Source of the DNA: a virus
Virus record (IMG/VR): IMGVR_UViG_3300000313_000010
Span: 1 to 27,100 of that record
DNA length: 27,100 bases
Strand: one strand, 5' to 3'
Of the stretch, positions 773-27,100 are shown piece by piece. Below the pieces are notes generated by a model. That model did no database searches. It was not told where the DNA came from and worked only from the letters and a program-made list of their open reading frames with translations. The translations under genes were made by a program, and so were the position numbers. Position 1 is the stretch's first letter, and the number at the start of each line of letters is the position of its first letter.

Positions 773-1132
773 ATGGAAAACCCACAAGAAGAGACAGTAA
801 ATTTACAAAAAACATTCGAAGAAACAGGAGTTTATACTACTGCAAATCCTGAAGATTTTAAAGTAATTGATGCTTTTTATCAAGCAGCTCCAGATGTAAG
901 AATTATGCAATATATGGATAGATTCTTTATCCAAACTAAAATTGCAAATATCATGGAAACTTATACAGATTTAGGAGATGAAAAAAATGGAGTAGTATCT
1001 TATCAAGTTGCTAACACTTTATTGATGCCTAAAGAAGGTTATACATCTTTAGAAGTTGCTTTAAATGCAGTTAAGTTAATGCAAACAGCACCTACATATA
1101 CTTATATTGAAAATACACATTCTAATGATTAA
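773..1132 (+). CDS. Hypothetical protein, 119 aa
   Basis: Soluble-looking protein, unrecognised. The first 25 residues are acidic and probably flexible (ENPQEETVNLQKTFEETG). The middle (KVIDAFYQAAPDVRIMQYMDRFF) is predicted helical and the C-terminus is Thr/Tyr-rich. There is no signal peptide. The final TAA shares one base with the ATG of the sigma-like gene at 1132, so the two are probably co-translated. An A-rich leader (730-772, almost no G) precedes the start. Possible DNA-packaging or regulatory accessory by position only. Confidence 0.65.
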   Translation: MENPQEETVNLQKTFEETGVYTTANPEDFKVIDAFYQAAPDVRIMQYMDRFFIQTKIANIMETYTDLGDEKNGVVSYQVANTLLMPKEGYTSLEVALNAVKLMQTAPTYTYIENTHSND

Positions 1133-1605
1133 TGAAGAAACCCCAATGGAACTCTATAGATGTGTCAGGTTGCATTAATAATAATCAAACTGATATAACT
1201 TATTTTTTCAATACAATAAGTCCGTGGCTGAATTATCTAACGTTTAATAACGAAGAGTTAAAACATGACATATTTTTGAAATTATTGAGTAAATTGCCAC
1301 AGTTTCAACCGTCCAAAGGGAAACTCCACAATTTCCTTTGGACGGTTGCAACAAATCATTATAAAGAATCTAAAATAATTAAAAAACGTAAAATTCTTTT
1401 TCATGATGTTGATATTTCTAACATAGATATTATTGAAGAAGAACATATGTTTTTTTCAAATAACCTAGAATTATTAGATAAGTTACCACAAAATGACCAT
1501 CTTTTTTTAATTAATCACATAATTAAACAAAAAAAAGATCAATCTATTCAAGACCGAAAACGCTTTCAACTTATTAAAAAACAACTACTTAAACTAAAGA
1601 ATTAA
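1132..1605 (+). CDS. Divergent sigma-70-like protein (region 2 recognisable, region 4 degenerate)
   Basis: Residues about 24-85 read like sigma-70 region 2: FFNTISPWLNYLTFNNEELK, then a DIFLKLLSKLPQFQP segment and a KLHNFLWTVATNHYKESK helix, matching the family pattern of acidic helix, (E/D).FLKL..KL..F.P..G....(F/W)L..IA.N. The C-terminus (LELLDKLPQNDHLFLINHII ... RFQLIKKQLLKLK) has the start and end of a region-4 layout but lacks room for a full helix-turn-helix. At 157 aa it is shorter than a usual ECF sigma factor. By family knowledge it would bind host core RNA polymerase and direct promoter opening; promoter choice cannot be inferred. It overlaps the upstream gene by one base and lies directly before the terminase genes. 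A 17-bp hairpin lies inside the region-2 coding sequence. Confidence 0.55.
   Translation: MKKPQWNSIDVSGCINNNQTDITYFFNTISPWLNYLTFNNEELKHDIFLKLLSKLPQFQPSKGKLHNFLWTVATNHYKESKIIKKRKILFHDVDISNIDIIEEEHMFFSNNLELLDKLPQNDHLFLINHIIKQKKDQSIQDRKRFQLIKKQLLKLKN
1304..1350 (+). repeat. Long inverted repeat (hairpin) inside the sigma-like gene
   Basis: CAACCGTCCAAAGG at 1306-1319 is the exact reverse complement of CCTTTGGACGGTTG at 1335-1348. One G-T and two A-T pairs extend the stem inward to about 17 pairs around a 9-base loop (1323-1331). The arms are much more GC-rich than surrounding DNA. The stem encodes sigma region-2 residues about 58-72. There is no U-run after it, so it is not a standard terminator; it may slow or regulate translation or mRNA decay. 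Confidence 0.8.
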
Positions 1606-13570: not shown

Positions 13571-13897
13571 ATGAAAACACAAGAAGAATTAGATGCAATT
13601 AAAATTGCATTAGAACCAACTCACAAGACTATCTATACTGTTGAAATCCCAGTTAACGAAGATGAACTTGAAACAAGAACTATTTTCTTAAAGAAATTTG
13701 ACAGAGCAACTTTAGCAGCAACGCAAAAAATGGTTTCTGTAGACTCTTTAAAAGCAATTGAGGTATTCGTTAAAAATACTTATATCGGAGGAGATGATCT
13801 TCAAGAAATCTTAAATGATTTGTATATGTTAAGGAGTTTAGAAGGTGTTATCGTTGATTTGATTTCAGTAAAAAAAGCCTCTCTAAAAAAAAATTAA
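13571..13897 (+). CDS. Tail assembly chaperone, short (unshifted) form
   Basis: 108-aa protein between the tube and tape-measure genes, the standard position of the gpG / gpE-type chaperone that holds the tape measure while the tube is assembled around it. It reads MKTQEELDAIKIALEPTHKT, then a beta segment, FLKKFDRATLAATQKMVSVD, and a C-terminal helix ending in a lysine-rich ASLKKN. The stop at 13895 follows a 9-A run (13885-13893) in the phase A_AAA_AAA that supports -1 slippage. A longer frameshifted form is annotated separately. Confidence 0.85.
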   Translation: MKTQEELDAIKIALEPTHKTIYTVEIPVNEDELETRTIFLKKFDRATLAATQKMVSVDSLKAIEVFVKNTYIGGDDLQEILNDLYMLRSLEGVIVDLISVKKASLKKN

Positions 13898-14067
13898 GTT
13901 CGTTAGAGGAAGATATTCAAGATAATTTCATTGCTCAGAATGACGCACTTATAAGATTTTATTACCACGTGAATCCTGATTTATTATCTGATAATAAATG
14001 GTTAAAATATTCGAATGAAATATTATGGATTCTTCGATTTAACGGAACATTAAAAATAAAAGAATAA
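13571..14067 (+). CDS. Tail assembly chaperone, long form by -1 frameshift
   Basis: After a one-base backward slip on A_AAA_AAA (13885-13891), reading continues in the -1 frame from 13891 to a TAA at 14065-14067. This adds 58 residues (KLSSLEEDIQDNFIAQNDAL then IRFYYHVNPDLLSDNKWLKY and a final ILWILRF segment) for a product of about 165 aa. The long gpGT / gpE'-type form is known to link the tape measure and the tube protein. CTCTAA at 13881-13886 can pair with TTAGAG at 13903-13908, placing the slip site in a loop. A terminator follows the -1 stop, supporting this as the true end. The shift was inferred from sequence only. Confidence 0.78.
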
Positions 14068-14108: not shown

Positions 14109-14522
14109 ATGAATAATAAAAAAATAAAACAAAAAGAATATAGAGATAAACAAAAAAGTTATCAGAAAGAATATCAGAAAAAATATAGAAAATCTGGTAA
14201 AAAATTATTTGGAGAAACTATTAAAGGAAAAGAATATCAAAAAGAATATAGAGAAATGGAAAAGAATAAAACAAAATTATTTTTAAAAAAATACGGAATT
14301 ACAAATAATGATTATAATGAAATGTTTGATCAACAAAAAGGATGTTGTAAAATCTGTTTTATTCACCAAAAAGAATTAAAAACAAAATTATTTATAGATC
14401 ATGATCATAAAACAGGGAAAGTAAGAGGATTACTTTGTAATTCATGTAATTTAGTTTTAGGATTTGCGAAAGATAATATAAATATATTAGAAGAATCTAT
14501 TAAATATTTAAAAAATCTTTAA
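14109..14522 (+). CDS. Endonuclease VII-like HNH endonuclease
   Basis: Likely a free-standing homing-type endonuclease. The N-terminal half is highly basic and helical (repeats of K-E-Y-Q-K/R). The C-terminal domain fits the recombination endonuclease VII family: CCKIC at 79-83, the central DHDH at 97-100 followed by KTGKVRGLLC, and NSCN at 111-114. The four zinc-binding cysteines and the catalytic DHD-H centre are present. At 137 aa it matches the family. It sits between a terminator and the tape-measure gene, where no structural gene is expected, suggesting insertion as a mobile element. Confidence 0.85.
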   Translation: MNNKKIKQKEYRDKQKSYQKEYQKKYRKSGKKLFGETIKGKEYQKEYREMEKNKTKLFLKKYGITNNDYNEMFDQQKGCCKICFIHQKELKTKLFIDHDHKTGKVRGLLCNSCNLVLGFAKDNINILEESIKYLKNL

Positions 14523-19876: not shown

Positions 19877-21841
19877 ATGAGTAATAAAACTAAAGTATCA
19901 TTAAAGGCAGAAATAGATGCTAAAGTATTTGAAAACACAAATAAATTAGTTACTGCTATAAATGTAAACGGAATTTTCAATGATATTGTTGATTCTAGTA
20001 ATTGGTATTTTTCATATGCTCAGAATACAACTATCGGTAGTACAACAGTTTTAATAAACACATCATCTTTCCAACAATATTTTACAGGAACTTCTTCTCA
20101 GACAGTACAGATGCCAGATGTGACTACTTTCACGTTGGGTGGATCTTTCAAGATAATAAATAAAAGCACTGGAGATATTAATGTTGTATCTAGCGGAGGT
20201 AATCTAATACAAGTAGTTAGTAGTGGAAATTATGCATTAGTTACATGTATTTTATTGACTGGCACTGGAAGTTCTTCTTGGGATGTCATTTATGGTACTA
20301 ACTCATCTATTTATAAATATGGAACAGGGACAATAAGCATTGTCCCTGTTTTAGGAAACCATACTTCTACTGGATATGGTAATTTTGTTGGTTCTGGTTT
20401 AACAAATAATGCTTCCGGTGAGAGATATTCAGTCGTAGTTGGAGGGGCTTTGAATAATTCTACAGACAGATATTCTGTCATTGTAGGTGGGGAATATAAT
20501 AACGCTAATGATATGTATACTTTCATCGGTGGAGGTATCTTTAATACAGTTTCAAACGAATTCGCTTCTGTTGTTGGGGGTGACAATAACACTGCTAGTG
20601 GATTTAAAAGTTCTGTTGTCGGTGGAAGTGGAAATACTGTTTCTGGAACTTCTTCTTCAATATTAGGTGGTGACAATAACACAAATAATAATAATAACAC
20701 ATTTATTCTTGGAAGTAATATAACAAGTTCTCAAGATAACACTACTTACGTTCAAAACCTGAACATATCTACTTTAGGTTCAGGAACTCCAGTAAATAAT
20801 CTAGCTTTAGACTCAAGTGGAAATGTAGTTGCTGCTGCTGGAATTTCAGGATATTCCGGAGTTAGTGGTTTTTCAGGAGCAAGCGGAATTTCTGGATGGT
20901 CTGGAGTTTCCGGATTTAGCGGTTATTCAGGAATATCTGGTATTAGTGGGGAATCTGGAACTTCAGGTTTCAGTGGAGTTTCCGGTTATTCTGGTATTTC
21001 AGGTTTCAGTGGAGTTTCTGGAACTTCAGGATTTAGTGGCATATCAGGAACAAGTGGTATTTCAGGTTTCAGTGGAGTTTCTGGAACTTCAGGATTTAGT
21101 GGTGCTTCAGGTTATTCCGGATGGTCAGGTACATCTGGATTTAGTGGTGTATCTGGATGGTCTGGCACGAGTGGAGTTTCAGGTTATTCAGGTGTATCTG
21201 GTTCCAGTGGGGTTTCTGGATGGTCTGGAATTTCAGGATTTACTGGAGTTAGCGGAGTTTCTGGTTATAGTGGTATTTCAGGTTATAGTGGAGTTTCTGG
21301 CCAATCTGGTTATTCAGGAACTTCTGGTTTTAGTGGTATCTCAGGTTATTCAGGAACAAGTGGATTTTCAGGTATTTCAGGATGGTCTGGAACTTCTGGT
21401 TTTAGTGGTATCTCAGGTTATTCAGGAACAAGTGGATTTTCAGGTGTTTCTGGATGGTCTGGTATTTCTGGTTACTCGGGATCTTCCTTTAGAACAATCC
21501 AATTCGCTGCCAGTGATACATCTTCAGCATTAACAGTATCAACTCCGTCAATTGTTGTTTATTCTCCATTTACCGGAACTATAAACGAGATTATAATAAC
21601 ATTAGGTACAGCTCAAACAAGTGGTAGCATATTTACTGTTGATATTAAAAAGAATGGAATAACAATTCTAAGCACATTAGCAACTATTGATAATACAGAA
21701 TTCACAAGCTTAACCGCGGTTACGGCTCCTGTTTTATCGGTAACAAGTTTAACAAAGGGTGATAAAATTACTTGTCAAATAACACAAGTTGGCGATGGAA
21801 CTGCTAAGCAATTGGGGATAATAATAAATGTTTTAATATGA
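19877..21841 (+). CDS. Mosaic long tail fibre protein with 15-residue beta repeats and a G-X-S repeat shaft
   Basis: 654-aa virion fibre in four parts. Residues 1-155 form a beta-rich attachment domain. About 175-295 has a 15-residue repeat (RYSVVVGGALNNST, RYSVIVGGEYNNAN, FASVVGGDNNTAS, SSVVGGSGNTVS), like YadA-type trimeric beta-roll heads. Residues 322-535 are an unbroken run of about 72 Gly-X-Ser triplets in which X is often F, Y, W, V or I, with only one Ser-to-Thr exception and no Pro. About 536-654 is a beta-sandwich-like tip, probably the receptor-binding end. The stop overlaps the next start. Host recognition is inferred from architecture. Confidence 0.82.
   Translation: MSNKTKVSLKAEIDAKVFENTNKLVTAINVNGIFNDIVDSSNWYFSYAQNTTIGSTTVLINTSSFQQYFTGTSSQTVQMPDVTTFTLGGSFKIINKSTGDINVVSSGGNLIQVVSSGNYALVTCILLTGTGSSSWDVIYGTNSSIYKYGTGTISIVPVLGNHTSTGYGNFVGSGLTNNASGERYSVVVGGALNNSTDRYSVIVGGEYNNANDMYTFIGGGIFNTVSNEFASVVGGDNNTASGFKSSVVGGSGNTVSGTSSSILGGDNNTNNNNNTFILGSNITSSQDNTTYVQNLNISTLGSGTPVNNLALDSSGNVVAAAGISGYSGVSGFSGASGISGWSGVSGFSGYSGISGISGESGTSGFSGVSGYSGISGFSGVSGTSGFSGISGTSGISGFSGVSGTSGFSGASGYSGWSGTSGFSGVSGWSGTSGVSGYSGVSGSSGVSGWSGISGFTGVSGVSGYSGISGYSGVSGQSGYSGTSGFSGISGYSGTSGFSGISGWSGTSGFSGISGYSGTSGFSGVSGWSGISGYSGSSFRTIQFAASDTSSALTVSTPSIVVYSPFTGTINEIIITLGTAQTSGSIFTVDIKKNGITILSTLATIDNTEFTSLTAVTAPVLSVTSLTKGDKITCQITQVGDGTAKQLGIIINVLI
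20323..20350 (+). repeat. Perfect 12-bp hairpin inside the fibre gene
   Basis: AACAGGGACAAT (20323-20334) and ATTGTCCCTGTT (20339-20350) form a perfect stem with loop AAGC. It falls near residue 150-158, at the boundary between the fibre's attachment domain and the 15-residue beta repeats. Two Ts follow, too few for a convincing terminator. Confidence 0.75.
20840..21481 (+). repeat. Gly-X-Ser triplet repeat DNA of the fibre shaft
   Basis: About 640 bases of nine-base-unit repeats coding for G-X-S triplets. Within it are larger tandem copies: a 72-base unit at 21317-21388 and 21389-21460, and a 63-base spacing between matching blocks near 20993 and 21056. Such DNA can expand or shrink by slippage or recombination and thus change fibre length. 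Confidence 0.9.
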
Positions 21842-25429: not shown

Positions 25430-25632
25430 TTCCAGTAATATCTTCTAATGTTAAAAGCATTGGATATAACCCTAAAAACAAAATAACATACGTCAAATTC
25501 AATAACGATTCGATGTATGTTTATTTTGGGGTTCCTCGAGAAACTTTTGAAAATTTTAAAAAAGCTGAATCAAAAGGTAAATTTCTACATTTACATATTA
25601 AAAATTCATATTCATATTTAAAGTTTAAATAA
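25426..25632 (+). CDS. KTSC domain protein
   Basis: 68 aa covering almost exactly one KTSC domain: V-x-S-x-x-V-K-S-I-G-Y at the start (PVISSNVKSIGYNPKN), ITYVKFNNDSMYVYFGVP as the middle hairpin (family: L.v.F..G..Y.Y..VP), then KKAESKGKFLHLHIKNSYSY (A.SkG.y.n..Ir..Y). The domain is common in phage and bacterial proteins, including the C-terminus of some lysyl-tRNA synthetases; its molecular function is unclear and RNA binding has been suggested. It overlaps its partner upstream and converges with the minus-strand gene (eight bases of overlap). Confidence 0.85.
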   Translation: MIPVISSNVKSIGYNPKNKITYVKFNNDSMYVYFGVPRETFENFKKAESKGKFLHLHIKNSYSYLKFK

Positions 25633-26014
25633 CTGAAAAATCTATAATTCTTTTGTTCATAGATACTTCTTCTCTTACATTTTCAATTAACTCTTCATCT
25701 AATTGTTTAACTACATAAAGTAATGAAGAATTAATATTTCTTAATTTATTTCTTATTATTATATAAGCAGTTTCCTTACCAGAAGTTTTTATAAAATCTT
25801 CTGCTATTATAATTTTTATATTAAATAATGCTCTATGTTTTTCTAATATTTTTTCTAATGCTATTTCTTTTTGATCAGTGATAAAAAATTTCATTTTATA
25901 ATTAGATTTTTCATTTGTTTTAGTTAAACCTAATTTACGTTTTTCATTACATCTTCTTACAGCTTCAACATGTGCAAATTTTCTTTCTTCTTCAGTATTA
26001 TATTTTTTCTTCAT
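25625..26014 (-). CDS. Hypothetical basic protein in the sigma operon
   Basis: 129 aa, unrecognised. The N-terminal 50 residues are strongly basic and helical (KKKYNTEEERKFAHVEAVRR, CNEKRKLGLTKTNEK), suggesting nucleic-acid binding. A mixed alpha/beta middle (MKFFITDQKEIALEKILEKH) and a helical end (YVVKQLDEELIENVREEV) follow. The ATG overlaps the stop of the gp55-like gene by four bases, so it is the last gene of that minus-strand operon. By analogy with T4, where gp55 works with gp33 and gp45, a transcription co-factor is possible, but this is speculation. Confidence 0.6.
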   Translation of the reverse strand: MKKKYNTEEERKFAHVEAVRRCNEKRKLGLTKTNEKSNYKMKFFITDQKEIALEKILEKHRALFNIKIIIAEDFIKTSGKETAYIIIRNKLRNINSSLLYVVKQLDEELIENVREEVSMNKRIIDFSVI

Positions 26015-26373
26015 AGATTGTGTGTATCATTAATACTTACAAAAAATATTTGAGTTTTATTTTCTTCATCCCTAGGATTTAATTGCTTAAATTCTTTTGC
26101 AGCACCAAATTTTATGATTTGACTAAAATATGCAAATACATTATCTGTTTTTTCTGGATTATAACTTCTCCAATATAAAGCACAATCTAATATTGCTCTA
26201 CATATACAATCTTTTCTATCATCATCATTCTTATAACTGAATTTTCTATTTATCATGTTCTTTGCTATTAATGAAAACATTCTATATGCTTCATCAGTTA
26301 AGCAATCTTGTTCTTTAGAAATTGCAAGTTGCTTTCGTAATTCATCAGCTTTTATATAGTTTCTATTTTCCAT
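26011..26373 (-). CDS. T4 gp55-like late transcription sigma factor
   Basis: Likely a minimal sigma factor that recruits host RNA polymerase to phage late promoters. CLTDEAYRMFSLIAKNMINR (24-43), RKDCICRAILDCALYWRSYN (53-72) and NVFAYFSQIIKFGAAKEFKQ (78-97) follow the gp55 pattern: LT...Y..F..I......Y, D..(D)...i..A...(c)...(W)..F(n), and N.FAYF.QII...(f). These resemble sigma-70 region 2. At 120 aa it is shorter than T4 gp55 (185 aa) and lacks an obvious separate clamp-binding tail. It overlaps the upstream split sigma gene by 22 bases and the downstream gene by four. Confidence 0.7.
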   Translation of the reverse strand: MENRNYIKADELRKQLAISKEQDCLTDEAYRMFSLIAKNMINRKFSYKNDDDRKDCICRAILDCALYWRSYNPEKTDNVFAYFSQIIKFGAAKEFKQLNPRDEENKTQIFFVSINDTHNL

Positions 26374-26843
26374 TGATTTCTAAATTCAATTGCTTCTTCT
26401 AAAGTGTTAAATTTTTTAATAAATTTATTATGCTTGTATAAATAAAAATAAAGACCATTAGTTGAAATGTTCTTTTCAACTCTTTTCTTTTTAGCAACTT
26501 TTTTCTTATCTCCGAATAATTTTGTACTATGTGGTGTAGATGTACCTGTTTTTATTCTAACTTTTTTTAAGAACCTACAAACATGACCTCTTATTGTAAC
26601 TTCCTGTAAGTTTAATATAGCAGCAACTTCTTTATATGAACCATTATGCTTTAATAAAAGCTCAAAAGATCTTTTATGAATTGAATCTGGCATATCATTT
26701 ATTATGTTTTTTATATAATTATATTGAGATTCTACATTAAATTCATCTTCTTCATCAATAAAATCTTTATCTTCTATAGAAGAAGTTCTTTGTTTTTTTT
26801 TCTTTTTTGTAATGCAAAATTTTTTGCAATAGTACATAACCAT
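26352..26843 (-). CDS. Sigma factor region-4 half (second frame of a split sigma gene)
   Basis: The distal half of a sigma-70-type protein in a different frame from its region 2. About 41-105 is region 4: NYIKNIINDMPDSIHKRSFE, then LLLKHNGSYKEVAAILNLQE and VTIRGHVCRFLKKVRIKTG, matching LP...r..f.l.....sy.EiA..L...e.TV..h..R.lkkLr with a helix-turn-helix that would read the -35 region. A basic linker and a C-terminal domain (YFYLYKHNKFIKKFNTLEEA followed by I-E-F-R) resemble an AP2-like DNA-binding hairpin. Own ATGs at 26843 and 26837 could give a separate polypeptide; otherwise it is made by -1 slippage from the region-2 frame. The fused product would be 220 aa. Confidence 0.68.
   Translation of the reverse strand: MVMYYCKKFCITKKKKKQRTSSIEDKDFIDEEDEFNVESQYNYIKNIINDMPDSIHKRSFELLLKHNGSYKEVAAILNLQEVTIRGHVCRFLKKVRIKTGTSTPHSTKLFGDKKKVAKKKRVEKNISTNGLYFYLYKHNKFIKKFNTLEEAIEFRNQWKIETI
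26770..26801 (-). promoter_or_regulatory. Probable -1 frameshift site joining the sigma halves
   Basis: On the minus strand an A-run of nine (26793-26801) contains A_AAA_AAA in the region-2 reading phase (ending at 26795). Slipping back one base gives ...KRKKKQRTSS..., joining residue 73 of region 2 to the region-4 frame. Eleven bases downstream is a perfect 14-base palindrome, TCTTCTATAGAAGA (26770-26783), that could form a weak 5-bp hairpin. Site and phase are seen directly; use of the site is inferred. The same heptamer occurs in the chaperone gene. Confidence 0.55.
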
Positions 26844-27013
26844 GTATTTATAGCAGCCTTTTCAACATCAAACAAATATTCTTTTTCCATTCCCTTTAAA
26901 AAGGTCTCAGAAACTATATCATTAATATCATCTTCATCTAATAAAATGGAACTAACAGTATTTCTTACTTGTCTTTTGTATTTAATGAAAGTATCATCCC
27001 AATTTATTTCCAT
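26774..27013 (-). CDS. Sigma factor region-2 half (first frame of a split sigma gene)
   Basis: 79-aa frame covering sigma-70 region 2: YKRQVRNTVSSILLDEDDIN, DIVSETFLKGMEKEYLFDVE and AAINTWLCTIAKNFALQKRK, fitting the core-polymerase-binding and -10-reading pattern (acidic dd..DivqetFlk... and the W/L..IA.N helix). It ends soon after in NKELLL and a stop, with no region 4. The stop is reached only if the ribosome does not slip on the A-run at 26793-26801. It is the first gene of this operon, starting just after a terminator that closes the previous minus-strand unit. It could be a truncated regulator, the unshifted form of a longer sigma, or a product of a sequencing error. Confidence 0.7.
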   Translation of the reverse strand: MEINWDDTFIKYKRQVRNTVSSILLDEDDINDIVSETFLKGMEKEYLFDVEKAAINTWLCTIAKNFALQKRKKNKELLL

Positions 27014-27060: not shown

Positions 27061-27099
27061 AAAAAAGGAACGGCTTTCTTTTTTAAGAAAGCCGTTCCT
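27061..27099 (-). terminator. Strong rho-independent terminator closing an upstream minus-strand unit
   Basis: AGGAACGGCTTTCTT (27066-27080) and AAGAAAGCCGTTCCT (27085-27099) form a perfect 15-bp stem with loop TTTT. Read on the minus strand it is followed by a run of six T (A at 27061-27066). It would stop transcription arriving from genes beyond the right edge, 48 bases before the sigma operon's ATG at 27013, so that operon probably has its own promoter in 27014-27060. Confidence 0.88.
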
Positions 27100-27100
27100 A

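What the first reader, a model, noticed from the sequence alone, without database searches (positions are those of the whole stretch)
26352..27013. Phage sigma factor split across two frames at a slippery A_AAA_AAA site
Region 2 and region 4 of one sigma-70-type protein are both well preserved but lie in overlapping frames. The 70-base overlap holds a nine-A run in the correct phase for -1 slippage, with a 14-base palindrome eleven bases downstream. Slippage would yield a 220-aa two-domain sigma; no slippage yields a lone 79-aa region-2 peptide that could still bind core polymerase. A frameshift-controlled sigma, making both full and promoter-blind forms, would be a new type of transcription switch. 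A region-4 product from the internal ATG is a further option.
Basis: partly seen in the sequence, partly recalled or inferred. Interest (0 to 1): 0.85.

Follow-up and report, generated by a model that had tools for sequence, protein, structure and literature searches.

The report
Phage sigma gene split at slippery run
A small virus of Bacteroidetes-type bacteria carries a gene for a transcription-switching protein (a sigma factor) that is cut into two overlapping reading frames exactly at a run of nine A's, the same run, in the same phase, that the virus appears to use for a well-known frameshift in its tail gene, so the protein may be made only when the cell's machinery slips; no reads or close relatives were available to exclude a simple one-base mutation or sequencing error.

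Summary
On the minus strand a complete sigma region 2 (79 aa, 27013-26774) is followed in the -1 frame by sigma region 4 plus a C-terminal extension (26843-26352). Profile hits and codon preference switch frames exactly at the A9 run (26801-26793). The read-through product is an ECF-type sigma: it aligns across the junction with E. coli RpoE and with single-frame sigmas of Bacteroidetes jumbo phages.

New evidence for real slippage: the window has only one other sense-strand A9, in the putative tail-assembly-chaperone gene (13571-14066), in identical phase and with a -1 extension. A relative (L116) has an A9 -1 junction at the same place in its tail operon. Long A-runs are depleted in intact genes: A>=9 in 608 relatives' genes, 7 seen against 52 expected; A>=10, 0 against 20.

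Against: 44 viral and 39 bacterial sigma homologues are all single-frame. Those 39 carry A9 or longer at this very spot, so the run alone is not a signal. No close relative was found, no stimulatory RNA structure is evident, and reads could not be checked.

Best reading: a recoding-dependent ECF sigma, made by transcriptional or ribosomal slippage (about 0.55). A mutation or assembly error at the hotspot is the main rival (about 0.33).

The parts
26774..27013 (-). ORF A: complete sigma region 2 (79 aa), frame 0
   Evidence: Pfam Sigma70_r2 40.8 bits, profile 4-69/71; phrog_1740 RNA polymerase sigma factor 7.6e-9
26352..26843 (-). ORF B: sigma region 4 plus about 60-aa C-terminal extension, frame -1 (163 aa from its first ATG; homology to sigma factors begins only around the A9)
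   Evidence: phrog_351 and phrog_1740 sigma, 7e-4; AlphaFold pLDDT about 90-98 over residues 41-99; Foldseek to E. coli sigmaE region 4 (2h27), rmsd 2.1 A over 64 columns, TM 0.73 by target, E-value only 0.11; own ECF profile positions 93-175
26793..26801 (-). A9 slippery run, frame 0 AGA AAA AAA AAC; proposed -1 recoding site
   Evidence: frame switch of codon preference and profile here
26770..26783 (-). 14-nt palindrome holding the ORF A stop; weak hairpin, no evidence that it stimulates
26011..26373 (-). next gene of the operon: T4 gp55-like late sigma factor (120 aa)
   Evidence: phrog_234 late sigma transcription factor 4.3e-11; relatives at 33-44% in T4-like contexts
25625..26014 (-). 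last gene of the minus-strand operon, 129 aa, function unknown
27066..27100 (-). hairpin followed by a T-run on the minus strand: likely terminator of the upstream gene; single N just beyond, at record position 27101
13571..14066 (+). putative tail assembly chaperone (between tail tube and tape measure genes) in two frames, joined at the only other sense A9 (13885-13893, CTA AAA AAA AAT TAA), same phase: in-genome comparison for the sigma site
   Evidence: phrog_19076 (3.9e-7, unnamed) ends at the junction; neighbours tail sheath, tail protein and tape measure

Best explanation
It is an ECF-type sigma-70 factor of a Flavobacterium-phage-like myovirus whose full-length form depends on recoding at an A9 run. 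Normal readout gives a 79-aa region-2-only peptide. Slippage at A9, either extra or missing A's added by RNA polymerase or a -1 tandem slip of the ribosome on A_AAA_AAA / A_AAA_AAC, joins region 2 to region 4 and the C-terminal extension in a 220-aa two-domain sigma, a minor share of the product. Shown: domain content, frame switch at the run, same-phase A9 in the tail chaperone, avoidance of long A-runs in intact genes. Inferred: that slippage occurs on this mRNA, that the full-length form is the active one, and which of the two slippage mechanisms acts.
For: Both domains are well preserved with no stop in the -1 frame over 147 codons after the run. The fused sequence aligns through the junction with RpoE (residues 9-148, E 4e-4) and with single-frame phage sigmas, including the KDFI-E linker motif right after the run. 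The only two sense A9 runs in the window both sit at -1 junctions in identical phase. Intact genes of the window avoid long A-runs: A>=7 10 against 20.6, 0 of 3000 shuffles as low; A>=8 2 against 8.2, 2 of 3000; A>=9 0 against 2.8, 41 of 3000. So do 608 genes of TerL relatives: A>=9 7 against 52, A>=10 0 against 20, as expected if such runs are slippery in these hosts. Relative L116 has an A9 -1 junction between its tail-tube-like and tape-measure-like genes. Published precedents: 9A runs support transcriptional slippage and are avoided in coding DNA, and the Shigella transcription activator MxiE is made that way (PMC1088944).
Against: No homologue shares the split: 44 viral and 39 bacterial homologues are uninterrupted, although the viral ones are all at or below 41% identity. 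The 39 bacterial genes have A9 or longer at the same spot, so the run alone does not mean recoding. No downstream structure beyond shuffled level. One record only; reads and transcripts not seen. Avoidance of A-runs can also come from replication slippage (as PMC1088944 notes). The tail-chaperone comparison is itself inferred from position and frames, not from a named family.
Confidence: 0.55

Rival explanations
1. Simple indel: a homopolymer mutation (including on/off phase variation by replication slippage) or an assembly or sequencing error at the A-run broke an ordinary single-frame ECF sigma gene; the split has no function of its own.
For: Every homologue that could be judged is single-frame; A-runs of 9-12 occur naturally at this Lys-rich spot in bacterial ECF genes; no stimulatory structure; the record carries an ambiguous base about 90 nt upstream of the start codon; only one record known.
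Against: None of 39 bacterial ECF genes with the same run is broken (by the rule of three this allows up to about 7%). No run of ten or more A's occurs in 608 genes of relatives, about 20 expected, so an uninterrupted version with a longer run would be unusual for this group, although the indel could lie elsewhere in the overlap. All other long genes of the record appear intact, and region 4 has gathered no stop.
Confidence: 0.33
2. Two-subunit sigma: region 2 (ORF A) and region 4 (ORF B, from the ATG at 26843 or 26837) are made as separate proteins that act together, like RsoA and SigO of Bacillus subtilis.
For: Each ORF holds one complete domain; the region-4 core is predicted with high confidence on its own; two-subunit sigma factors exist (PMC10028694); the neighbouring gp55-like gene is a region-2-type sigma of a family known (own knowledge) to work with a separate flap-binding protein.
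Against: ORF B's start would lie 70 nt inside ORF A; the largest other same-strand overlap between genes here is 22 nt. Residues 1-10 of ORF B have no counterpart in homologues and its codons there are not coding-like. No start codon lies near the ORF A stop (next ATG 26693, inside region 4).
Confidence: 0.08
3. Region 2 alone is the functional product and region 4 is a decaying remnant.
For: Region-2-only late sigmas exist (T4 gp55, own knowledge), and one lies next door.
Against: Region 4 is free of stops, coding-like in its frame, predicted with high confidence and still aligns to the ECF profile.
Confidence: 0.04

Closest known systems
ECF (group IV) sigma-70 factors, e.g. E. coli RpoE; nearest phage sequences found: ECF-like sigmas of Bacteroidetes jumbo phages (LR745206, LR756502, Lak phages, IMG/VR contigs)
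   Same: Region 2 and region 4 with a short linker and no other sigma region; alignment runs through the junction
   Different: Here the two regions lie in different frames; shorter linker; about 60-aa C-terminal extension absent from the homologues aligned
Shigella mxiE (AraC-type transcription activator made by transcriptional slippage) and 'pseudo pseudogenes' with 9A/9T (Baranov et al. 2005, PMC1088944)
   Same: A transcription regulator in two overlapping ORFs joined by slippage at a homopolymer; the long form needs slippage
   Different: Sigma factor rather than AraC activator; sense A-run rather than U-run; phage gene; slippage not shown here
Phage tail assembly chaperone -1 frameshift (lambda gpG/gpGT type; PMC5009743)
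   Same: Identical -1 geometry at A9 in this same phage (13571-14066)
   Different: Structural-assembly gene; the frameshift is widely conserved there, and not known in sigma genes as far as I found
SigO-RsoA two-subunit sigma of B. subtilis (PMC10028694)
   Same: Region 2 and region 4 on separate ORFs
   Different: There the two proteins have separate genes; here the ORFs overlap by 70 nt at a slippery run
T4 gp55 late sigma (phrog_234)
   Same: The gene directly downstream belongs to this family by profile
   Different: Not the split gene itself

Membership tests
ECF sigma-70 factor | Sigma region 2 | tested here: met
   Pfam Sigma70_r2 40.8 bits, cut-off 24
ECF sigma-70 factor | Sigma region 4 after a short linker, no regions 1.1/3 | tested here: met
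   Below Pfam cut-off by sequence, but ECF profile 93-175 in frame -1 (4e-4), alignment 9-148 with RpoE, region-4 fold (Foldseek E-value 0.11, geometry good)
ECF sigma-70 factor | One uninterrupted reading frame | tested here: not met
   Stops between the domains in frame 0
ECF sigma-70 factor | Binds core RNA polymerase and starts transcription at its own promoters | not testable with these tools
   Needs protein work
Recoding site (-1 ribosomal frameshift or transcriptional slippage) | Slippery run in the right zero-frame phase at the frame switch | tested here: met
   AGA AAA AAA AAC; switch located there
Recoding site (-1 ribosomal frameshift or transcriptional slippage) | Downstream frame encodes a conserved domain | tested here: met
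   Region 4
Recoding site (-1 ribosomal frameshift or transcriptional slippage) | Arrangement conserved among relatives | tested here: not met
   No split homologue among 44 viral and 39 bacterial genes; close relatives absent
Recoding site (-1 ribosomal frameshift or transcriptional slippage) | Stimulatory RNA structure (ribosomal type only, not always present) | tested here: not met
   Fold energies at shuffled level
Recoding site (-1 ribosomal frameshift or transcriptional slippage) | Fusion product or mixed-length mRNA detected | not testable with these tools
   No transcripts or peptides
SigO-RsoA-type two-subunit sigma | Region 2 and region 4 made from separate starts | tested here: inconclusive
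   An internal ATG exists but in an atypical 70-nt overlap
Phage tail assembly chaperone (-1 extension), for 13571-14066 | Lies between tail tube and tape measure genes, -1 extension at a slippery run | tested here: met
   no named chaperone family matched (phrog_19076 is unnamed)

The most novel reading that the evidence does not exclude
A phage sigma factor whose dose is set by slippage at A9: most readouts give a region-2-only peptide, which may compete for or work with RNA polymerase alongside the adjacent gp55-like sigma, and a fixed fraction gives the full two-domain sigma, so one mRNA yields promoter-blind and promoter-reading forms in a set ratio.
Probability: 0.2. Interest if true: 0.8.

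Novelty: new variant of a known kind. Interest (0 to 1): 0.52.

Why it matters
Recoding is well known for tail chaperones, insertion sequences and dnaX, and for the activator MxiE, but I found no report of a sigma factor that depends on it (open-access papers only). If real, it would set the level of a phage's transcription switch by slippage rather than by promoters. It also shows that ORFs dismissed as broken may be functional in phages whose genes otherwise purge long A-runs: no run of ten or more in 608 genes of relatives against about 20 expected, so an A9 at a frame junction is a useful flag.

Tried and rejected
Close relatives of the sigma, the capsid protein and the gp55-like gene by single-sequence scans: none. 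A pattern of the region-2 motif followed by A9 in viral contigs: none; the region-2 motif in all synonymous forms: none. Fifty records of TerL relatives searched for the sigma: only one weak match with stops, near TerL. ECF genes next to gp55-like genes in other viruses: none. Palindrome as stimulator: not supported. L193, at first an apparent split bacterial ECF, is merely cut by the end of the locus. L080/L082/L092, A9 at an overlap of a short gene pair, set aside as possibly ordinary overlapping genes because the second frame has its own ATG. Relatives of a virus record cannot be drawn automatically.

Full report
What is there. The window is 27,100 bases of a 29,556-base virus record, 30% GC. 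Its large terminase is 52% identical to that of Flavobacterium phages of the FPSV group, and it has a tail sheath, a tail protein and a tape measure gene, so it is a contractile-tailed phage of a Bacteroidetes-type host (host inferred). On the minus strand ORF A (27013-26774, 79 aa) is a complete sigma region 2. ORF B (26843-26352) carries region 4 and a C-terminal extension in the -1 frame. The overlap is 70 nt and contains A9, read AGA AAA AAA AAC in frame 0. The next gene, 26373-26011, matches the T4 gp55-type late sigma family at 4e-11.

Is it one gene in two frames? Yes, by four lines of evidence. (1) The fused -1 sequence aligns through the junction with single-frame sigmas of jumbo phages and, in the PDB, with E. 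coli RpoE over residues 9-148. (2) An ECF profile built from viral homologues matches frame 0 up to codon +19 and frame -1 from codon +20, counted from the W of the W-L-x-T-I-A motif, i.e. at the run. (3) Codon preference is best in frame 0 upstream and in frame -1 downstream, with the change between 26833 and 26803. (4) The region-4 ORF gives a high-confidence helical core that superposes on the sigmaE region-4 structure at 2.1 A over 64 columns, although the Foldseek E-value is weak (0.11).

Is the A9 a slippage site? The window has exactly two A-runs of nine. The other, 13885-13893, lies in the gene between the tail protein and the tape measure gene, where tail assembly chaperones lie. It reads CTA AAA AAA AAT TAA, and the -1 frame stays open to 14066. 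Same length, same phase, same direction of shift. One terminase relative, L116, has an A9 -1 junction between a tail-tube-like and a tape-measure-like gene (these two named by position and sequence look, not by profile). Long A-runs are rarer in intact genes than in synonymous-codon shuffles. In the window: A>=7 10 against 20.6, none of 3000 shuffles as low; A>=8 2 against 8.2; A>=9 0 against 2.8 (the shuffles keep each protein and each gene's codons). In 608 genes of AT-rich terminase relatives: A>=9 7 against 52 and A>=10 0 against 20. Baranov et al. (PMC1088944) found the same avoidance around nine A or T in many bacteria and tied it to transcriptional slippage, while noting that replication slippage would also contribute.

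What speaks against a programmed site. All 44 viral homologues are single-frame. A scan of bacterial genomes for the region-2 motif followed within 12-42 nt by A9 returned 80 stretches (80 is the likely cap of the tool). Of these, 39 are ECF genes that could be judged over region 4 and all 39 run on uninterrupted. So A9 is natural at this Lys-rich place, and the break, not the run, is what is unusual. The hairpin downstream is no better than shuffled sequence. No relative closer than about 41% was found, so conservation, the strongest test, could not be made. The record has one ambiguous base just upstream of the operon, and reads were not available.

Weighing. Slippage explains the preserved region 4, the exact frame switch and the match with the tail gene. 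A one-base indel or assembly error explains the single-frame homologues and needs no new mechanism, but it would put the break by coincidence in the same run and phase as the chaperone site. A longer uninterrupted A-run would be out of character for this phage group. The phase itself is weak evidence, since one of the two indel directions gives it. I put recoding-dependent expression at 0.55, a non-functional indel or error at 0.33, a two-subunit sigma at 0.08 and region 2 alone at 0.04. Even if the split began as a mutation, slippage at A9 would still give some full-length protein ('pseudo pseudogene', PMC1088944). Ribosomal and transcriptional slippage cannot be told apart from sequence.

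Comparison with the known. By domain make-up it belongs with ECF sigma factors; one customary feature, a single frame, was tested and not met. It works like mxiE or the tail chaperones if the slippage is real. It is not shown to be a two-subunit sigma like SigO-RsoA (PMC10028694): the internal start would need a 70-nt overlap, against at most 22 nt elsewhere on one strand here. I found no report of a sigma factor made by slippage, within a search of open-access papers only.

Noticed in passing
window 13571-14066, A9 at 13885-13893: Putative tail assembly chaperone with a -1 extension at the only other A9; the match to PHROG family 19076 (unnamed) ends exactly at this junction.
   Followed up: yes
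window 26011-26373 (-): T4 gp55-like late sigma in a small Flavobacterium-phage-like genome; its best relatives lie in T4-like and jumbo phage contexts without an ECF sigma beside them, suggesting acquisition.
   Followed up: partly
window 1132-1605 (+): A further region-2-like sigma ORF (22-23 bits, just below Pfam cut-off) just before the terminase genes, so the phage may carry three sigma-like genes.
   Followed up: partly
loci L059-L138 (TerL relatives, GC at most 36%): Strong depletion of sense A-runs in 608 genes: A>=8 63 against 149, A>=9 7 against 52, A>=10 0 against 20 expected.
   Followed up: yes
L116:9232-9883: A9 -1 junction between tail-tube-like and tape-measure-like genes of a relative, a second likely A9 chaperone frameshift.
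   Followed up: yes
L080:1012, L082:6357, L092:393: A9 at the end of a short gene with a 48-codon -1 continuation that also has its own ATG just before; overlapping genes or another recoding site.
   Followed up: no
window 26352-26530 (-), C-terminal part of ORF B: About 60-aa extension after region 4 (low-confidence linker, then short helices), absent from the viral homologues aligned.
   Followed up: partly
window 19877-21841 (+): Long SGxSG-type repeat region in a probable tail fibre protein.
   Followed up: no
window 14109-14522 (+): Endonuclease-VII/HNH-like ORF inserted between the tail chaperone and the tape measure gene (by sequence look only).
   Followed up: no
record position 27101 (just outside the window): Single N next to a terminator-like hairpin upstream of the sigma operon; possible scaffold join or ambiguous base.
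   Followed up: partly
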